Assembly (NCBI RefSeq): GCF_029581575.1
Contig: NZ_CP089975.1
Coordinates: 868,001-932,000 of the forward strand
Source: Moraxella nasibovis
GTDB taxonomy: Bacteria; Pseudomonadota; Gammaproteobacteria; Pseudomonadales; Moraxellaceae
Reading direction: 5' to 3'
Length of the DNA: 64,000 nucleotides
In this document: piece after piece, positions 27,571 through 49,880 of the stretch
Position numbering within the stretch: the first letter of the stretch is position 1
How the letters are laid out: every line of letters begins with the position of its first letter
Made by a program: the position numbers and the translations under genes
The notes under the pieces: model-generated
The model's input: the letters and a program-made list of their open reading frames with translations, nothing else
What the model was told of the DNA's origin: nothing
Database searches by the model: none

Positions 27571-27681
27571 CCAAAAACTCCCCAAAACAGAATGAATTTC
27601 AGCAAGTCGGCAAAAAAGCAATGCTCATCATTTCATCGTTATGTTCAGCAGGGAATTTTACCAAAAGAGTGGGGCGGCTGA
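27571..27681 (+). pseudogene. Relic of a REP-associated tyrosine transposase (internal deletion)
   Basis: Matches two separate parts of the intact RAYT gene at 49251-49742: the piece around 49505-49555 (CTCCCCAAAACAGAAyGAATT, then CAAGTCGGCAAAAAA), joined directly to the 3' end from about 49686 (TCATTTCATCG, TATGTTCAGCAGGG, GAGTGGGGCGGCTGA). About 130 bp in between, including the catalytic Tyr region, is deleted, and the 5' half is absent. ACTCCCC is locally duplicated. The homology continues past the stop through 27816, including the flanking REP. Confidence 0.8.
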
Positions 27682-27883: not shown

Positions 27884-28279
27884 ATGAAAAATAATTTAGG
27901 TCATATATATCAAAATTTAGCTAATAGCTTATTAATTAATATGAGTTCTGAAAGTTGGGATAAAATTATTCTAAAATCAGATATTTTGAGAGATAATGCG
28001 AGTAGTATTCGTTTTATTCTTTATGATAAAGGAAGTGAGGTTAGCCAAGAACTGACATTTGAAACAGCATTTGCTATAAATGATTTGTTAATAGAATTAA
28101 GAAATATTATGCTACACAGCACAGGTCATCGCATTTGGGGCTTGTTATTTACCCTATACCCTGATGGCAATTTTGAAATAGAGTATGATTATAATAAACC
28201 AGAAGATTACGAAGAAAGTGATGATATTATCTTAGGTGATGAAATCAATCAATCGCTGGATAAATTGGGAATAAGATAA
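27884..28279 (+). CDS. YezG/DUF600-type immunity protein of a polymorphic toxin system
   Basis: A 131-aa acidic, AT-rich protein without signal or membrane segment. The order of features resembles the YezG (DUF600) immunity family: an N-terminal helix (HIYQNLANSLLINM), a W-D-K-I segment, an S-x-x-FxxY strand pair, and a late strand block FTLYPDGNFEIEYDYN. Such proteins neutralise the C-terminal nuclease of LXG-, CDI- or Rhs-type toxins. No intact toxin gene precedes it; only a REP and a short possible toxin tail do, so it looks like an orphan or stored immunity gene. Base composition is clearly more AT-rich than the core genes. Confidence 0.7.
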   Translation: MKNNLGHIYQNLANSLLINMSSESWDKIILKSDILRDNASSIRFILYDKGSEVSQELTFETAFAINDLLIELRNIMLHSTGHRIWGLLFTLYPDGNFEIEYDYNKPEDYEESDDIILGDEINQSLDKLGIR

Positions 28280-28486: not shown

Positions 28487-28573
28487 GCTCGTAGGTTGGG
28501 TTGAACGATAGTGAAACCCAACATTTAAATTCAGCCCTTGATTTTGTTGGGTTTCGTAAACTCAACCCAACCT
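28487..28573. repeat. REP-family element split by IS110 copy 1
   Basis: Starts GCTCGTAGGTTGGGTTGAACG and runs to CTCAACCCAACCT, where the IS begins; the missing end CTACGGGCTG continues at 29813-29822 on the other side of the IS. Confidence 0.85.
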
Positions 28574-28584
28574 TGTATCTCACC

Positions 28585-28785
28585 ACCAAGACTAGCTATC
28601 TTGGTGATGGCATGGTAGATTATACCATCACCCTAAGTTACTTGGTAGTTTCTACCCAACCTGAGTACTTTGATGCTGTCTCGTAGATTAAACCCAAGTA
28701 GCTTTCTTATCATCGTACAATCTGAATGGTATCCAAGCGCTTGATTGATTTTCAATCATGACGCTGAATGAACAAGGCTAGATGA
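28585..28785 (+). ncRNA. Candidate bridge RNA of IS110 copy 1
   Basis: The leader upstream of the transposase folds in order into: a 5' hairpin CACCAAGA/TCTTGGTG (28584-28606, alternative GGTGATGG/CCATCACC); a target loop closed by GTTACTTGG (28637-28645) with CCAAGTAGC (28694-28702) and GTTT with AAAC, holding ACCCAACCT (28654-28662) and CTCGTAG (28680-28686); and a donor loop holding ATGGTATC (28726-28733) and ACAAG (28772-28776) around a hairpin GATTGA/TCAATC with AGCG/CGCT. TCATC (28710-28714) with GATGA (28781-28785) may close it, overlapping the transposase start. Guides match target and IS ends. Exact RNA ends are not known. Confidence 0.72.
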
Positions 28786-29789
28786 CAATGACTTATTATG
28801 TTGGTATTGATGTTAGCAAGCACAAGCTGGATGTGGCTTGGCTTAAAGAGTTAAGTACAATGAAAGTCAAAACCAAAGTCTTTAATAATCACTTTGATGA
28901 CTTTGAACACATCATTCATTGGCTTAAAACCAATCTTGGTGCAAGTGTCAGCTTTAACGACATTCATCTTATTATGGAAGCCACAGGGGTATATCACGAA
29001 CCTTTGGCGTATTATTTACACGATTTAGGCTTTAAAGTCTCTATCATCAATCCTGCCTTTGTCAAACACTATGCGGACAGTTTAGGCGTAAGACAAAAGA
29101 CAGATAAAAAAGACAGTATTGTCCTTGCCAGATATGGCAGAGCCACCCACCCTGATGCTTGGATTGCCCCAAGTATTGAAGCTCGTCATTTAAAGTCTTT
29201 GCTTTCTCGTCTTGATGCTCTAAATGAAGACTTACAGCGAGAAGAAAACCGCAAAGAAAAAGCAGAAGTGGCAGACACAACCCCCATTGTTAAACAATCC
29301 ATTGACGAGATGATTGTGGCATTAAAATTGGCAATCAGCAAATTAAACGATGACATTGACACTCATATCAACAACCACCCCAAACTTAAAGAAGAGCAAA
29401 CACTCTTACAAAGCATCAAAGGAGTGGGACAGGTGGTGTCAAGACAAATGCTTAGTTTGTTTAATACCAAACAATTTAACAATGCCAAACAAGTCTCTGC
29501 TTTTTTAGGGTTGATTCCCAAACAACAAGAATCAGGATTGTTTAAAGGCAGATCAAGACTTGCCAAAACAGGCAATGCTCAATTAAGAGCTAAGCTGTAT
29601 ATGGCAGCAGTCGTTGCCACCAAGTACAATCCAGACATTAAAGACCAATACGAACGCTTACAACAAAATGGCAAATGCAAAATGCAAGCTTTATGTGCTT
29701 GTATGCGTAAATTGGTGCAAATCTGCTTTGGTGTGATCAAACACCAAACTCCCTACACCCCACAAGTTAGGATAGATAATATGGCTTGA
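28782..29789 (+). CDS. IS110-family transposase (DEDD recombinase), copy 1
   Basis: A 335-aa recombinase. The N-terminal RuvC-like DEDD domain has Asp10 (YYVGIDVSK), Glu66 (LIMEATGVYHE), and Asp108/Asp111 (KTDKKD). A coiled-coil-like linker (about 145-190) leads to the C-terminal Transposase_20 domain with the helix-hairpin-helix SIKGVGQVVSRQ, FLGLIPKQ and the catalytic serine in QESGLFKG (Ser251), followed by TGNAQLRAKLYMAA. IS110 enzymes use a structured RNA from the element's own end to choose target and donor. The ATG lies at the 3' edge of the predicted RNA. All catalytic residues are intact and the three copies are identical, so the element was recently active. Confidence 0.95.
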   Translation: MTMTYYVGIDVSKHKLDVAWLKELSTMKVKTKVFNNHFDDFEHIIHWLKTNLGASVSFNDIHLIMEATGVYHEPLAYYLHDLGFKVSIINPAFVKHYADSLGVRQKTDKKDSIVLARYGRATHPDAWIAPSIEARHLKSLLSRLDALNEDLQREENRKEKAEVADTTPIVKQSIDEMIVALKLAISKLNDDIDTHINNHPKLKEEQTLLQSIKGVGQVVSRQMLSLFNTKQFNNAKQVSAFLGLIPKQQESGLFKGRSRLAKTGNAQLRAKLYMAAVVATKYNPDIKDQYERLQQNGKCKMQALCACMRKLVQICFGVIKHQTPYTPQVRIDNMA

Positions 29790-29814
29790 CAAGGGGTGGG
29801 GAGAGATGGTATCT
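29786..29814 (+). promoter_or_regulatory. Outward/circle-junction promoter at the IS110 right end
   Basis: TTGACA (29786-29791), overlapping the transposase stop, then 18 bases, then TATCT(A) at 29810-29815. In an excised circle joined at the CT core the -10 would read TATCTT and drive the bridge RNA leader; in the inserted state it points into the flanking toxin/immunity cassette. The same sequence is in all copies. Confidence 0.45.
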
Positions 29815-29821
29815 ACGGGCT

Positions 29822-45184: not shown

Positions 45185-45195
45185 TGTATCTCACC

Positions 45196-45396
45196 ACCAA
45201 GACTAGCTATCTTGGTGATGGCATGGTAGATTATACCATCACCCTAAGTTACTTGGTAGTTTCTACCCAACCTGAGTACTTTGATGCTGTCTCGTAGATT
45301 AAACCCAAGTAGCTTTCTTATCATCGTACAATCTGAATGGTATCCAAGCGCTTGATTGATTTTCAATCATGACGCTGAATGAACAAGGCTAGATGA
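45196..45396 (+). ncRNA. Candidate bridge RNA of IS110 copy 2
   Basis: Same sequence as 28585-28785 shifted by 16,611 bases. Target guides ACCCAACCT at 45265-45273 and CTCGTAG at 45291-45297; donor guides ATGGTATC at 45337-45344 and ACAAG at 45383-45387. Confidence 0.72.
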
Positions 45397-46400
45397 CAAT
45401 GACTTATTATGTTGGTATTGATGTTAGCAAGCACAAGCTGGATGTGGCTTGGCTTAAAGAGTTAAGTACAATGAAAGTCAAAACCAAAGTCTTTAATAAT
45501 CACTTTGATGACTTTGAACACATCATTCATTGGCTTAAAACCAATCTTGGTGCAAGTGTCAGCTTTAACGACATTCATCTTATTATGGAAGCCACAGGGG
45601 TATATCACGAACCTTTGGCGTATTATTTACACGATTTAGGCTTTAAAGTCTCTATCATCAATCCTGCCTTTGTCAAACACTATGCGGACAGTTTAGGCGT
45701 AAGACAAAAGACAGATAAAAAAGACAGTATTGTCCTTGCCAGATATGGCAGAGCCACCCACCCTGATGCTTGGATTGCCCCAAGTATTGAAGCTCGTCAT
45801 TTAAAGTCTTTGCTTTCTCGTCTTGATGCTCTAAATGAAGACTTACAGCGAGAAGAAAACCGCAAAGAAAAAGCAGAAGTGGCAGACACAACCCCCATTG
45901 TTAAACAATCCATTGACGAGATGATTGTGGCATTAAAATTGGCAATCAGCAAATTAAACGATGACATTGACACTCATATCAACAACCACCCCAAACTTAA
46001 AGAAGAGCAAACACTCTTACAAAGCATCAAAGGAGTGGGACAGGTGGTGTCAAGACAAATGCTTAGTTTGTTTAATACCAAACAATTTAACAATGCCAAA
46101 CAAGTCTCTGCTTTTTTAGGGTTGATTCCCAAACAACAAGAATCAGGATTGTTTAAAGGCAGATCAAGACTTGCCAAAACAGGCAATGCTCAATTAAGAG
46201 CTAAGCTGTATATGGCAGCAGTCGTTGCCACCAAGTACAATCCAGACATTAAAGACCAATACGAACGCTTACAACAAAATGGCAAATGCAAAATGCAAGC
46301 TTTATGTGCTTGTATGCGTAAATTGGTGCAAATCTGCTTTGGTGTGATCAAACACCAAACTCCCTACACCCCACAAGTTAGGATAGATAATATGGCTTGA
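45393..46400 (+). CDS. IS110-family transposase, copy 2
   Basis: 335 aa, identical to copy 1: DEDD residues Asp10, Glu66, Asp108, Asp111 and Ser251 in QESGLFKG are intact. Copies 2 and 3 face each other around the toxin remnants at 46.4-47.9 kb. Confidence 0.95.
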   Translation: MTMTYYVGIDVSKHKLDVAWLKELSTMKVKTKVFNNHFDDFEHIIHWLKTNLGASVSFNDIHLIMEATGVYHEPLAYYLHDLGFKVSIINPAFVKHYADSLGVRQKTDKKDSIVLARYGRATHPDAWIAPSIEARHLKSLLSRLDALNEDLQREENRKEKAEVADTTPIVKQSIDEMIVALKLAISKLNDDIDTHINNHPKLKEEQTLLQSIKGVGQVVSRQMLSLFNTKQFNNAKQVSAFLGLIPKQQESGLFKGRSRLAKTGNAQLRAKLYMAAVVATKYNPDIKDQYERLQQNGKCKMQALCACMRKLVQICFGVIKHQTPYTPQVRIDNMA

Positions 46401-46432
46401 CAAGGGGTGGGGAGAGATGGTATCTACGGGCT

Positions 46433-46819
46433 GATTTAACCAGACCTTCTTTAAGGGCGAACACAAAGCGTTTGATTGAAGCAAGTCACAACTATAACGC
46501 TGATGGAAAAGCTCTAGATGATGATGACAATGTCATTGAACCCCCTTATCATTATGGTCATAAAACAAACTGGGAGAATAGACGAATTATCGCAGCTGCC
46601 ACCGAGCTTGGCTGGGATCAAGCCACACTAAATGACTATGTCAATGCCAGATCAGGTCATTTTGAGTTGCAAAATGATAAATTCAATCTAGGTCATCAAG
46701 GTGAAAATAAAAGCCTAGAAGATTTAGGTAATATTAAAGATGATATGAATGATTTTTTAAACAAGAGAGACAAACTATGCATACTAGACCCTCAGACCAA
46801 TCAATGCAAGAAAATCTAG
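46433..46819 (+). pseudogene. GH-E nuclease toxin C-terminal domain, severed from its delivery protein
   Basis: 128 codons in frame, beginning right after the REP end: RPSLRANTKRLIEASH, then EPPYHYGHKTNWENRRII, in which Gly42-His43 and Glu48 form the GH-E signature of the HNH/EndoVII-like toxin clan, then GHFELQNDKFNLGHQGENK. This is the entire tip domain of a polymorphic toxin; family members are normally fused to a large secreted (CDI, Rhs or Maf-type) protein. Here the frame can only begin at a TTG inside IS110 (46397), so it probably is not expressed as a toxin. The ankyrin gene overlaps its end. Confidence 0.75.
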
Positions 46820-47367
46820 CAATGAGAATTATTAGAGCCAATCACGAAGGTAATGTTGATTTTCTAAAACAAGTCTTTTTGGAAGATAAATCCTTTGATA
46901 TATTTTATATCAATCGTGGTAAATCAAATTGGCTACACTCTGCAAATACACTTAACCCTTCGCCTGTAGAAGTGATGGAGTTTTATATAGAACAAGGTGT
47001 ACCATTAGACGCTCAAAATCAATATGGCGATACACCACTACATTATGCTGTGCGTGAGCATAATGCTGATGCAGTATTGGCATTATTAAAAGCAGGTGCT
47101 AACCCGCATATTAGAAATGAAAGAGGCGTAACTGCATTACAACAGTTGGTTGGAAAAATTATTTTAGAAGAAGATGTACCTATTTTTGAATATATGTTTG
47201 AATATGGCATAGATCCCTATGAACTAATTTCGGAAAGATCAAAATCATCATTTTTTGATTATCTAAAAAAGGCCTTACACCCCTACAATTCAAAGGGAGA
47301 GCAATCTTACAGACCCTATCTACAGCCACTTGTAGATAGATTAACTGAGAATTTTCAGGAAAAATAA
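46777..47367 (+). CDS. Ankyrin-repeat immunity protein
   Basis: A soluble 196-aa protein with ankyrin repeats, best seen at QNQYGDTPLHYAVREHNADAVLALLKAGANPHIRNERGVTALQQLV (shown in part: GDTPLHYAVREHNADAVL). Ankyrin proteins are a known immunity class for nuclease toxins, and the gene overlaps the 3' end of the GH-E toxin domain, the classic toxin-immunity layout. Start is ambiguous: 46777 has AGAGAG upstream at good spacing; ATG 46804 and 46822 lack one. No signal peptide. The gene is AT-rich against the core genome. Confidence 0.78.
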   Translation: MHTRPSDQSMQENLAMRIIRANHEGNVDFLKQVFLEDKSFDIFYINRGKSNWLHSANTLNPSPVEVMEFYIEQGVPLDAQNQYGDTPLHYAVREHNADAVLALLKAGANPHIRNERGVTALQQLVGKIILEEDVPIFEYMFEYGIDPYELISERSKSSFFDYLKKALHPYNSKGEQSYRPYLQPLVDRLTENFQEK

Positions 47368-47906: not shown

Positions 47907-47938
47907 AGCCCGTAGATACCATCTCTCCCCACCCCTTG

Positions 47939-48946
47939 TCAAGCCATATTATCTATCCTAACTTGTGGGGTGTAGGGAGTTTGGTGTTTGATCACACCAA
48001 AGCAGATTTGCACCAATTTACGCATACAAGCACATAAAGCTTGCATTTTGCATTTGCCATTTTGTTGTAAGCGTTCGTATTGGTCTTTAATGTCTGGATT
48101 GTACTTGGTGGCAACGACTGCTGCCATATACAGCTTAGCTCTTAATTGAGCATTGCCTGTTTTGGCAAGTCTTGATCTGCCTTTAAACAATCCTGATTCT
48201 TGTTGTTTGGGAATCAACCCTAAAAAAGCAGAGACTTGTTTGGCATTGTTAAATTGTTTGGTATTAAACAAACTAAGCATTTGTCTTGACACCACCTGTC
48301 CCACTCCTTTGATGCTTTGTAAGAGTGTTTGCTCTTCTTTAAGTTTGGGGTGGTTGTTGATATGAGTGTCAATGTCATCGTTTAATTTGCTGATTGCCAA
48401 TTTTAATGCCACAATCATCTCGTCAATGGATTGTTTAACAATGGGGGTTGTGTCTGCCACTTCTGCTTTTTCTTTGCGGTTTTCTTCTCGCTGTAAGTCT
48501 TCATTTAGAGCATCAAGACGAGAAAGCAAAGACTTTAAATGACGAGCTTCAATACTTGGGGCAATCCAAGCATCAGGGTGGGTGGCTCTGCCATATCTGG
48601 CAAGGACAATACTGTCTTTTTTATCTGTCTTTTGTCTTACGCCTAAACTGTCCGCATAGTGTTTGACAAAGGCAGGATTGATGATAGAGACTTTAAAGCC
48701 TAAATCGTGTAAATAATACGCCAAAGGTTCGTGATATACCCCTGTGGCTTCCATAATAAGATGAATGTCGTTAAAGCTGACACTTGCACCAAGATTGGTT
48801 TTAAGCCAATGAATGATGTGTTCAAAGTCATCAAAGTGATTATTAAAGACTTTGGTTTTGACTTTCATTGTACTTAACTCTTTAAGCCAAGCCACATCCA
48901 GCTTGTGCTTGCTAACATCAATACCAACATAATAAGTCATTGTCAT
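47939..48946 (-). CDS. IS110-family transposase, copy 3
   Basis: 335 aa, identical to copies 1 and 2, with all DEDD and serine active-site residues present. Lies between the minus-strand toxin fragment and the RAYT gene. Confidence 0.95.
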   Translation of the reverse strand: MTMTYYVGIDVSKHKLDVAWLKELSTMKVKTKVFNNHFDDFEHIIHWLKTNLGASVSFNDIHLIMEATGVYHEPLAYYLHDLGFKVSIINPAFVKHYADSLGVRQKTDKKDSIVLARYGRATHPDAWIAPSIEARHLKSLLSRLDALNEDLQREENRKEKAEVADTTPIVKQSIDEMIVALKLAISKLNDDIDTHINNHPKLKEEQTLLQSIKGVGQVVSRQMLSLFNTKQFNNAKQVSAFLGLIPKQQESGLFKGRSRLAKTGNAQLRAKLYMAAVVATKYNPDIKDQYERLQQNGKCKMQALCACMRKLVQICFGVIKHQTPYTPQVRIDNMA

Positions 48947-49143
48947 CTAGCCTTGTTCATTCAGCGTCATGATTGAAAATCAATCAAGCGCTTGGATACC
49001 ATTCAGATTGTACGATGATAAGAAAGCTACTTGGGTTTAATCTACGAGACAGCATCAAAGTACTCAGGTTGGGTAGAAACTACCAAGTAACTTAGGGTGA
49101 TGGTATAATCTACCATGCCATCACCAAGATAGCTAGTCTTGGT
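48943..49143 (-). ncRNA. Candidate bridge RNA of IS110 copy 3
   Basis: Reverse-strand equivalent of 28585-28785, with the same guides and stems. Confidence 0.72.
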
Positions 49144-49154
49144 GGTGAGATACA

Positions 49155-49210: not shown

Positions 49211-49250
49211 GGGGACTTTGCCAGCCCTATACCTTTATTTGTATGATGAC

Positions 49251-49742
49251 ATGAAATATCGCCGACATTACGAGCCAAATAAAAGCTATTTTTTCACCCT
49301 AAATCTGGCAGATCGATCCAGTGATTTGCTGTTAAGGCACATCGATGAGCTGCGTCATGCCTTTAAAATCGTCAAGCAGCAGCGCCCATTTGACATTGAC
49401 GCTATCGTGATATTGCCAGACCATCTGCACATGCTATGCACCTTTGATGATGATTGTGATTATTCCACACGCATTCGTCTGATCAAATCTTATTTTTCTC
49501 AAAAACTCCCCAAAACAGAACGAATTTCAACAAGTCGGCAAAAAAAGCAAGAAAGGGGCATTTGGCAAAGACGCTTTTGGGAGCATTGCATCAAAGACGA
49601 GCAAGATTTTAATTTTCATGTTGATTATATCCACATCAACCCTGTAAAACACGGTCTAGTGAGCAAGGTGTCAGATTGGCAATATTCATCATTTCATCGG
49701 TATGTTCAGCAGGGAATTTTACCAAAAGAGTGGGGCGGCTGA
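49251..49742 (+). CDS. REP-associated tyrosine transposase (RAYT)
   Basis: A 163-aa Y1-type HUH nuclease of the TnpA(REP) family. Landmarks: MKYRRHYEPNKSYFFTLNLA, the metal-binding HUH pair His58/His60 in PDHLHML, the catalytic Tyr126 in HVDYIHINPVKHGLV, and the diagnostic WQYSSFHRYV. RAYTs nick single-stranded REP hairpins and are thought to be domesticated single-copy enzymes spreading REPs. The gene is flanked on both sides by REPs of the family dispersed through this window. An upstream TTG (49218) is in frame, but ATG 49251 gives the family N-terminus. A deleted relic of the same gene and its 3' flank is at 27571-27816. Confidence 0.9.
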   Translation: MKYRRHYEPNKSYFFTLNLADRSSDLLLRHIDELRHAFKIVKQQRPFDIDAIVILPDHLHMLCTFDDDCDYSTRIRLIKSYFSQKLPKTERISTSRQKKQERGIWQRRFWEHCIKDEQDFNFHVDYIHINPVKHGLVSKVSDWQYSSFHRYVQQGILPKEWGG

Positions 49743-49830: not shown

Positions 49831-49880
49831 CCCATTGAATTTGTTGGGTTTCGCAAGCTCAACCCAACCTACCGAGCTTA
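49831..49880. repeat. REP-family half element downstream of RAYT
   Basis: CCCATTGAATTTGTTGGG...AACCCAACCTACCGAGCT. Located at the same distance from the RAYT stop as the REP at 27761-27816 from the RAYT relic. Confidence 0.8.

What the first reader, a model, noticed from the sequence alone, without database searches (positions are those of the whole stretch)
28637..28702. IS110 leader carries a target-guide loop that matches its own REP insertion site
Seen: GTTACTTGG/CCAAGTAGC plus GTTT/AAAC (one two-base bulge, one G-U) close an internal loop with ACCCAACCT (28654-28662) on the 5' side and CTCGTAG (28680-28686) on the 3' side. All three copies are inserted at CAACCCAACCT/ACGGGCTG. The 5' guide is identical to the left nine target bases including the CT core; the 3' guide pairs with CTACGGG, six Watson-Crick pairs plus one G-U. 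Known: IS110-family elements such as IS621 encode a bridge RNA whose target loop has exactly a left guide of target-like sequence and a right guide complementary to the other half, with a CT core. Inference: this is a bridge RNA programmed to REPs.
Basis: partly seen in the sequence, partly recalled or inferred. Interest (0 to 1): 0.92.

Follow-up and report, generated by a model that had tools for sequence, protein, structure and literature searches.

The report
Bridge RNA of a REP-targeting IS110
This jumping gene carries, just upstream of its enzyme gene, a sequence that looks like a guide RNA whose two loops spell out where it inserts (a small repeated hairpin of its host) and what it inserts (its own ends); it is a well-supported new example of the recently discovered bridge RNAs rather than a new kind of system.

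Summary
The leader of the IS110 at 28574-29814 (one of nine copies in the genome, three in the window) has the anatomy of an IS621-type bridge RNA. A covariance model built from 18 relatives, without this element, finds the three window copies at E 8e-25 (next hit 0.59) and the real IS621 leader at E 1e-8. Over 94 related insertions with 18 guide types, guides and insertion sites change together: 0 of 100,000 permutations reach the observed match, for each half. The target is a true REP: a REP-associated tyrosine transposase (RAYT) gene at 49218-49742 lies between two copies of the repeat, and IS copy 3 sits in one. This is a new member of a known kind. Most novel reading: the right guide (GTAG) is aimed at the complement of the GTAG tag that RAYT enzymes need, while the left guide follows the drifting REP stem. 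No transcript or activity was measured.

The parts
28563..28573 (+). Left target half with CT core (CAACCCAACCT), 3' arm of a REP hairpin (GTTGGGTTTCG...AACCCAACCT, 28546-28573)
28574..29814 (+). IS110 element, copy 1 (left end to the right-hand core CT)
   Evidence: nine copies compared
28603..28632 (+). 5' stem-loop, GGTGATGG / CCATCACC
   Evidence: fold; not supported by the alignment of relatives
28635..28704 (+). Target-binding stem-loop of the bridge RNA (outer helix 28635-28645 with 28694-28704; inner 28648-28651 with 28690-28693; hairpin 28664-28667 with 28674-28677)
28654..28662 (+). Left target guide, ACCCAACCT
   Evidence: covariation with targets
28680..28686 (+). Right target guide, CTCGTAG, pairs with CTACGGG (6 Watson-Crick, 1 G-U)
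   Evidence: covariation with targets
28720..28783 (+). Donor-binding stem-loop (outer 28720-28723 with 28780-28783; hairpin 28736-28739 with 28762-28765); it overlaps the first bases of the recombinase gene
28726..28733 (+). Left donor guide ATGGTATC, same letters as the right end 29806-29813
28768..28776 (+). Right donor guide AT(GA)ACAAG, nine letters pairing with the seven donor letters CTTGTAT
28782..29789 (+). IS110 DEDD recombinase, 335 aa; D10, E66, D108, D111 and S251 line up with IS621 D11, E60, D102, D105 and S241
29786..29791 (+). TTGACA, a -35-like box in the right end, 18 bases from the TATCT|T that would form where the ends meet in the circle
   Evidence: spacing counted, ends not joined; control
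29806..29814 (+). Left donor, ATGGTATCT with core
29813..29819 (+). Right target half with core, CTACGGG
45185..46425 (+). IS110 copy 2 (guides 45265-45273 and 45291-45297)
47914..49154 (-). IS110 copy 3 (guides 49066-49074 and 49042-49048), inserted in the REP left of the RAYT gene
49218..49742 (+). RAYT / TnpA-REP gene, the enzyme linked to the targeted REPs
   Evidence: NF047646 E 2.6e-57; PDB 4er8 E 4e-41
49843..49872 (+). Uninterrupted REP right of the RAYT gene, GTTGGGTTTCGCAAGCTCAACCCAACCTAC

Best explanation
The leader encodes a bridge RNA of the IS621 type. When the element is excised as a circle, its abutted ends form a promoter (-35 in the right end, -10 across or just past the junction), and the RNA is transcribed from the left end. 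The first internal loop pairs with both strands of the REP foot: the left guide with the bottom strand of ACCCAACCT, the right guide with the top strand of CTACGGG. The second loop pairs with the joined ends of the element. The DEDD/serine recombinase then exchanges strands next to the shared CT core and inserts the circle in one orientation. Shown by sequence: the conserved fold, both guide pairs, the covariation, the catalytic residues, the target. Inferred from the published IS621 work: transcription, RNA binding, strand exchange.
For: Nine copies, all after CCCAACCT at a REP hairpin. Covariance model R1, built without this element, gives E 7.8e-25 for each of the three window copies, nine hits at E <= 0.001 in the genome, all at these copies (150 of 409 first-look candidates scored), and E 1.4e-8 for the real IS621 leader. 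Helices keep pairing through changes on both sides: 19 of 25 pairs, 95.5% of 442 cells paired against 31-42% for slid versions. Left guides: 82 of 105 letters outside the core agree with their targets, 35.8 under permutation; right guides 61 of 75, 23.6 under permutation; 0 of 100,000 each. Left guide at least 7 of 9 in 86 of 94 loci; right guide at least 5 of 7 (G-U counted) in 86 of 90. Donor loop: the variable left-donor base is T/T in 55 and C/C in 34 of the 89 loci scorable on both sides, and the 9-on-7 right donor guide is found in 93 of 94. A -35-like box with at most one mismatch at 16-18 bases: 15 of 23 distinct right ends, 3% of shuffled ones. Recombinase matches IS621 (E 4e-54) and ISCro4 (E 1e-49), 37% identical to IS621, and NCBIfam NF033542 'IS110 family RNA-guided transposase'.
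Against: No RNA or activity data. In 8 of 94 loci the left guide matches fewer than 7 of 9 letters; in 4 of 90 the right guide makes only 4 of 7 pairs. One element (L044) fits neither half: its guides belong to one lineage and it sits at the site of a sister lineage. Occupied sites are not significantly better matched on the right than empty ones: 5 of 9 against 9 of 39 with full pairing, Fisher p 0.067. One of the five structure measures, the number of pair types, did not stand out from shuffles (116 of 500). Model R1 hit 7 of 17 further loci; it missed all 8 tried from the below-40% group, L012 and L049. The lineages are related, so the permutation counts overstate independence.
Confidence: 0.95

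Rival explanations
1. The match between leader and insertion site is a captured REP fragment or coincidence, and the recombinase recognises REPs by protein-DNA contacts.
For: REPs are common here: 39 uninterrupted AACCCAACCTAC. The leader match alone was reached by 3 of 20,000 shuffles, not zero.
Against: Relatives with unrelated targets carry unrelated guides at the same two columns; an independent covariance model finds the whole two-loop fold.
Confidence: 0.02
2. The leader RNA mainly regulates recombinase expression (as small RNAs do for ISPpu9, PMC8450116, search listing only) and does not guide.
For: The donor loop runs into the start codon (28782), so it could affect translation.
Against: Regulation would not require guide-target covariation or a donor guide that follows the element's own end. 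The two roles could coexist.
Confidence: 0.03

Closest known systems
IS621 and its bridge RNA (Durrant 2024 PMC11208160: abstract, sections 5-7, 12, 13 and passages read; Hiraizumi 2024 PMC11208158: passages read)
   Same: Left-end RNA with two internal loops, left guide of about nine letters, right guide ending in GTAG, CT core, donor guide of nine letters on seven, REP target, the five catalytic residues, junction promoter; the real IS621 leader scores 37.6 bits with a model made from relatives of this element.
   Different: Different REP class (CCCAACCTAC here, ATCAGGCCTAC at the IS621 copy read); right-guide pairing reaches 7 in 5 of 9 sites and is 4 to 6 in the rest, where a passage on IS621 speaks of 4 extended to 7 by design; recombinase 37% identical.
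ISEc21 seekRNA (IS110 type; PMC11187229: start of abstract in a listing and passages read)
   Same: Upstream non-coding region, circle with junction promoter, RNA-guided target choice.
   Different: Its target is a linear site inside IS3-family elements, not a REP; leaders were not compared here.
IS1111-group elements such as ISPa11 (REP target; passage of PMC11187229)
   Same: RNA-guided DEDD elements, some at REPs.
   Different: RNA in the right end and subterminal inverted repeats (PMC11208160 section 12); here the RNA is in the left end.

Membership tests
IS110 group with bridge RNA (IS621-like) | DEDD RuvC domain plus C-terminal domain with conserved serine | tested here: met
   PF01548 and PF02371; D10, E66, D108, D111, S251 aligned to IS621
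IS110 group with bridge RNA (IS621-like) | Structured RNA in the left end with a target loop and a donor loop | tested here: met
   predicted structure
IS110 group with bridge RNA (IS621-like) | Left and right target guides complementary to opposite strands, overlapping at a CT core | tested here: met
IS110 group with bridge RNA (IS621-like) | Donor guides matching the joined ends | tested here: met
   the right-donor letters do not vary, so only the left one could show covariation, at one position
IS110 group with bridge RNA (IS621-like) | Promoter formed at the circle junction | tested here: met
   consensus match only: a -35-like box with at most two mismatches 17 or 18 bases away in 90 of 90 loci with both ends; at most one mismatch in 15 of 23 distinct right ends, 3% of shuffled ones
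IS110 group with bridge RNA (IS621-like) | RNA is expressed, binds the recombinase and is needed for recombination | not testable with these tools
   no RNA or biochemical data
Rfam RNA families | Match at a curated threshold | tested here: not met
   0 matches in the window against 4227 families
REP / RAYT system (the target) | Hairpin tagged with GTAG (complement CTAC), flanking a RAYT gene | tested here: met
   definition from PMC8266576 introduction

The most novel reading that the evidence does not exclude
The right target guide of the IS621-like branch is aimed at another transposition system's invariant signal. Its ...GTAG pairs with CTAC, the complement of the GTAG tag that RAYT enzymes need on their REPs. 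The left guide covers the class-specific stem and drifts with it. Lineages in genomes without RAYT mostly have other right guides. RNA-guided elements would thus exploit the one part of a REP that cannot change.
Probability: 0.45. Interest if true: 0.55.

Novelty: new member of a known kind. Interest (0 to 1): 0.42.

Why it matters
It gives a clean natural data set in which bridge-RNA guides have been re-aimed several times within one bacterial family: right halves CTACG, CTCTT, CTGAG, CTTTGG, CTCAAAC and CTCAGG, each with its matching guide. It also places an RNA-guided element and the REP/RAYT system it inserts into side by side in one window, which makes testable why REPs are such frequent IS110 targets.

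Tried and rejected
The search for related loci on genome contigs found no relative, and a distant DNA search of plasmids found only short matches in two records. Rfam has no matching family at its thresholds. I tested whether occupied REPs are the best right-half matches: not significant. I tested whether each left guide matches the REPs beside its own genome's RAYT better than those of other genomes. It does not discriminate: own best scores were 9, 7, 7, 6, 9, 7, 8 of 9 for seven genomes, and other genomes often score as high (REP strings picked by hand). The outer target helix looked broken in part of the first alignment (A1) because of a one-column shift; it pairs in A2. Coincidence and captured-REP readings were rejected on the covariation.

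Rows dropped before counts: 117 of 120 loci had a tblastn match (L014-L016 had none). 23 were left out of the guide counts: 17 below 40% identity, and 6 with no left-end anchor (L012, L041, L048, L049, L050, L118); four of these six (L041, L048, L050, L118) do carry an R1 hit. Four of the 94 kept had no readable right end. In the RAYT comparison G005 was searched but left out, because its elements belong to the below-40% group, and G316, which has both guide kinds, was counted as GTAG. In one search each of the 15 distinct guides was counted once, with the target of the first lineage that bears it.

Full report
What is there. The window holds three copies of an IS110 element (28574-29814 +, 45185-46425 +, 47914-49154 -). 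The genome holds nine, with identical proteins, identical left ends and, as printed, identical right ends. Each has a 208-base left end, a 335-residue recombinase and a 25-base right end with the core. The left flank always ends in CCCAACCT and the right flank always starts with AC after a shared core CT.

All letters and coordinates check. The fold of 28600-28800 gives the stem closing the target loop and a second stem-loop, z-score -2.38. The paired guides were reached by 3 of 20,000 dinucleotide shuffles of the leader.

Independent test. I collected relatives from the own genus (22 genomes with the own one) and family (348 genomes). The aligned left ends (A1, 20 sequences) show the same two stem-loops. 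RNAalifold alone predicts helices in both loops, with both-side changes in 9 of 16 pairs. On 18 relatives without this element or its nearest relative (A2), 95.5% of cells pair and 19 of 25 pairs have changes on both sides; slid versions reach 31-42% paired. One measure, the number of pair types, did not exceed shuffles. The structure was drawn on one of these sequences, which favours it, but R1 was then tested outside the set. It gave 7.8e-25 for each of the three window copies, with the next hit at E 0.59. Of 17 further loci it hit seven: both copies of the nearest relative (1.7e-26), four that had no readable left-end anchor, and the true IS621 leader from an E. coli plasmid (1.4e-8). It missed ten: eight of the below-40% group, L012 and L049. 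In the whole genome it gave nine hits at E <= 0.001, all at the nine copies (150 of 409 candidates scored).

Guides follow targets. For 94 loci in 18 guide types, all 94 left flanks end in CT and all 90 readable right flanks begin with CT; CT is partly what the anchors ask for. Examples (guides / target): ACCCAACCT with CTCGTAG / ACCCAACCT-ACGGG (this element, commonest site); ACGCACCCT with TTTGTAG / ACGCACCCT-ACGCA; GTATAACCT with GTAAGAG / GTATAACCT-CTTAA; GTTCGCCCT with TGCTCAG / GTTCGCCCT-GAGCT (34 copies); TTGTTTACT with CCCAAAG / TTGTTTACT-TTGGG. Permutation of guides among targets: 0 of 100,000 reach the observed match, for the left and for the right. A scan of the left-end columns (those with more than 30% gaps left out) against 22 target positions puts 28654-28659 (identity; two overlapping five-base stretches tie) and 28680-28684 (complement) first. 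Exceptions: 8 of 94 left, 4 of 90 right. Two of the eight (L043, L045) match when shifted by one base, which I counted as misses. L044 carries the guides of one lineage and sits at a sister lineage's site, which suggests exchange of elements by recombination, or off-target insertion.

Donor loop. ATGGTATC (28726-28733) repeats the right end, and ATGAACAAG pairs with CTTGTAT leaving GA out, the nine-on-seven pattern reported for IS621 (PMC11208160 section 7). Across relatives the one variable left-donor position is T with T in 55 loci and C with C in 34, with no discordant case among the 89 scorable on both sides; five of 94 were not scorable. A -35-like box (at most two mismatches) lies 17 or 18 bases from a TATCT-type -10 at or just past the junction in all 90 loci with both ends: TTGACA with spacing 18 for this element. 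Of 23 distinct right ends 15 have at most one mismatch, against 3% of shuffled ends.

The target is a REP. The hairpin GTTGGGTTTCG...AACCCAACCT occurs 25 times in the genome, five of them holding an IS copy (reverse control 0), and AACCCAACCTAC uninterrupted 39 times (control 0). In the window a RAYT gene (49218-49742; NF047646 E 2.6e-57; PDB 4er8 E 4e-41) lies between two of these repeats. Copy 3 of the IS has inserted in the left one. A second intact RAYT and a remnant (window 27598-27678, near copy 1) lie in the same genome.

A step further. [quoted passage not shown] coli RAYT (PMC8266576 introduction). Its complement is CTAC, the right half in 9 of 9 copies here, and the IS621 leader has the same GTAG with right flank CTACG. 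Hairpins with at least a 6-base arm ending in CCTAC turned up in all 15 RAYT loci examined from nine genomes (12 above the family cut-off, 3 below): 36 in all, against 1 to 4 for six other five-base feet and 0 to 2 in 20 shuffles. Among relatives, 12 of 23 loci with a GTAG guide sit at a perfect hairpin (at least 6 pairs) ending at the core, against 1 of 71 with other guides; 9 of the 12 are this element's own copies, so without them it is 3 of 14. RAYT was found in 7 of 9 genomes with GTAG-guided elements (one only a fragment below the cut-off) and in 1 of 11 with only other guides, Fisher p 0.003 (table filled in by hand). This is confounded by descent: all eight g2 genomes lack RAYT. And left guides do not match the REPs of their own genome's RAYT better than those of other genomes. 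So the idea that the right guide is aimed at the RAYT tag is supported but not settled. In the searched library one paper holds IS621, GTAG and REP together and nine hold IS110, RAYT and REP. In the passages I read of the first (PMC2817692), IS621 appears only in the reference list, among ISs said to use REPs as targets. GTAG and RAYT do not occur in PMC11208160. The other eight papers were seen as listing only.

Verdict. A well-supported bridge-RNA element of the IS621 type with a REP target. NCBIfam already names the family an RNA-guided transposase, and bridge RNAs were predicted in 85.7% of IS110s (PMC11208160 section 12). I searched the library for Moraxella with IS110 (nine papers). Three of them I searched for passages on Moraxella and found this element in none; the other six were seen as listing only.

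Noticed in passing
L113 (G171:C9:1868900-1870800) and L087 (G011:C1:1154300-1156100): In two relatives the left flank of the element is its own left end up to the left guide and core, i.e. the element's left junction sits at a copy of its own guide. This looks like self-targeting of the guide (or unequal recombination at the core). The exact L113-type junction was found in 1 of 175 genomes of that genus, G171 itself.
   Followed up: partly
L044 (G132): An element whose guides fit one lineage's target but which sits at the target of a sister lineage; a candidate for recent guide or element exchange.
   Followed up: partly
L013, L019, L021, L085, L093: Distant relatives (31-32% identity) beside what looks by eye like a type 4 pilin gene, like the Piv invertase (name from PMC11187229 passages); they lack the left end seen in the others, and the three given to model R1 (L013, L019, L085) gave no hit.
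   Followed up: no
27598-27678: Remnant of a RAYT gene (78% identity over 27 residues) about 0.9 kb upstream of IS copy 1.
   Followed up: no
46777-47367: Ankyrin-repeat gene between the inverted IS copies 2 and 3, which could flip by recombination between them (flipping not tested).
   Followed up: no
27884-28279: YezG-like immunity-type protein just upstream of IS copy 1, PF04634 E 1.3e-6.
   Followed up: no
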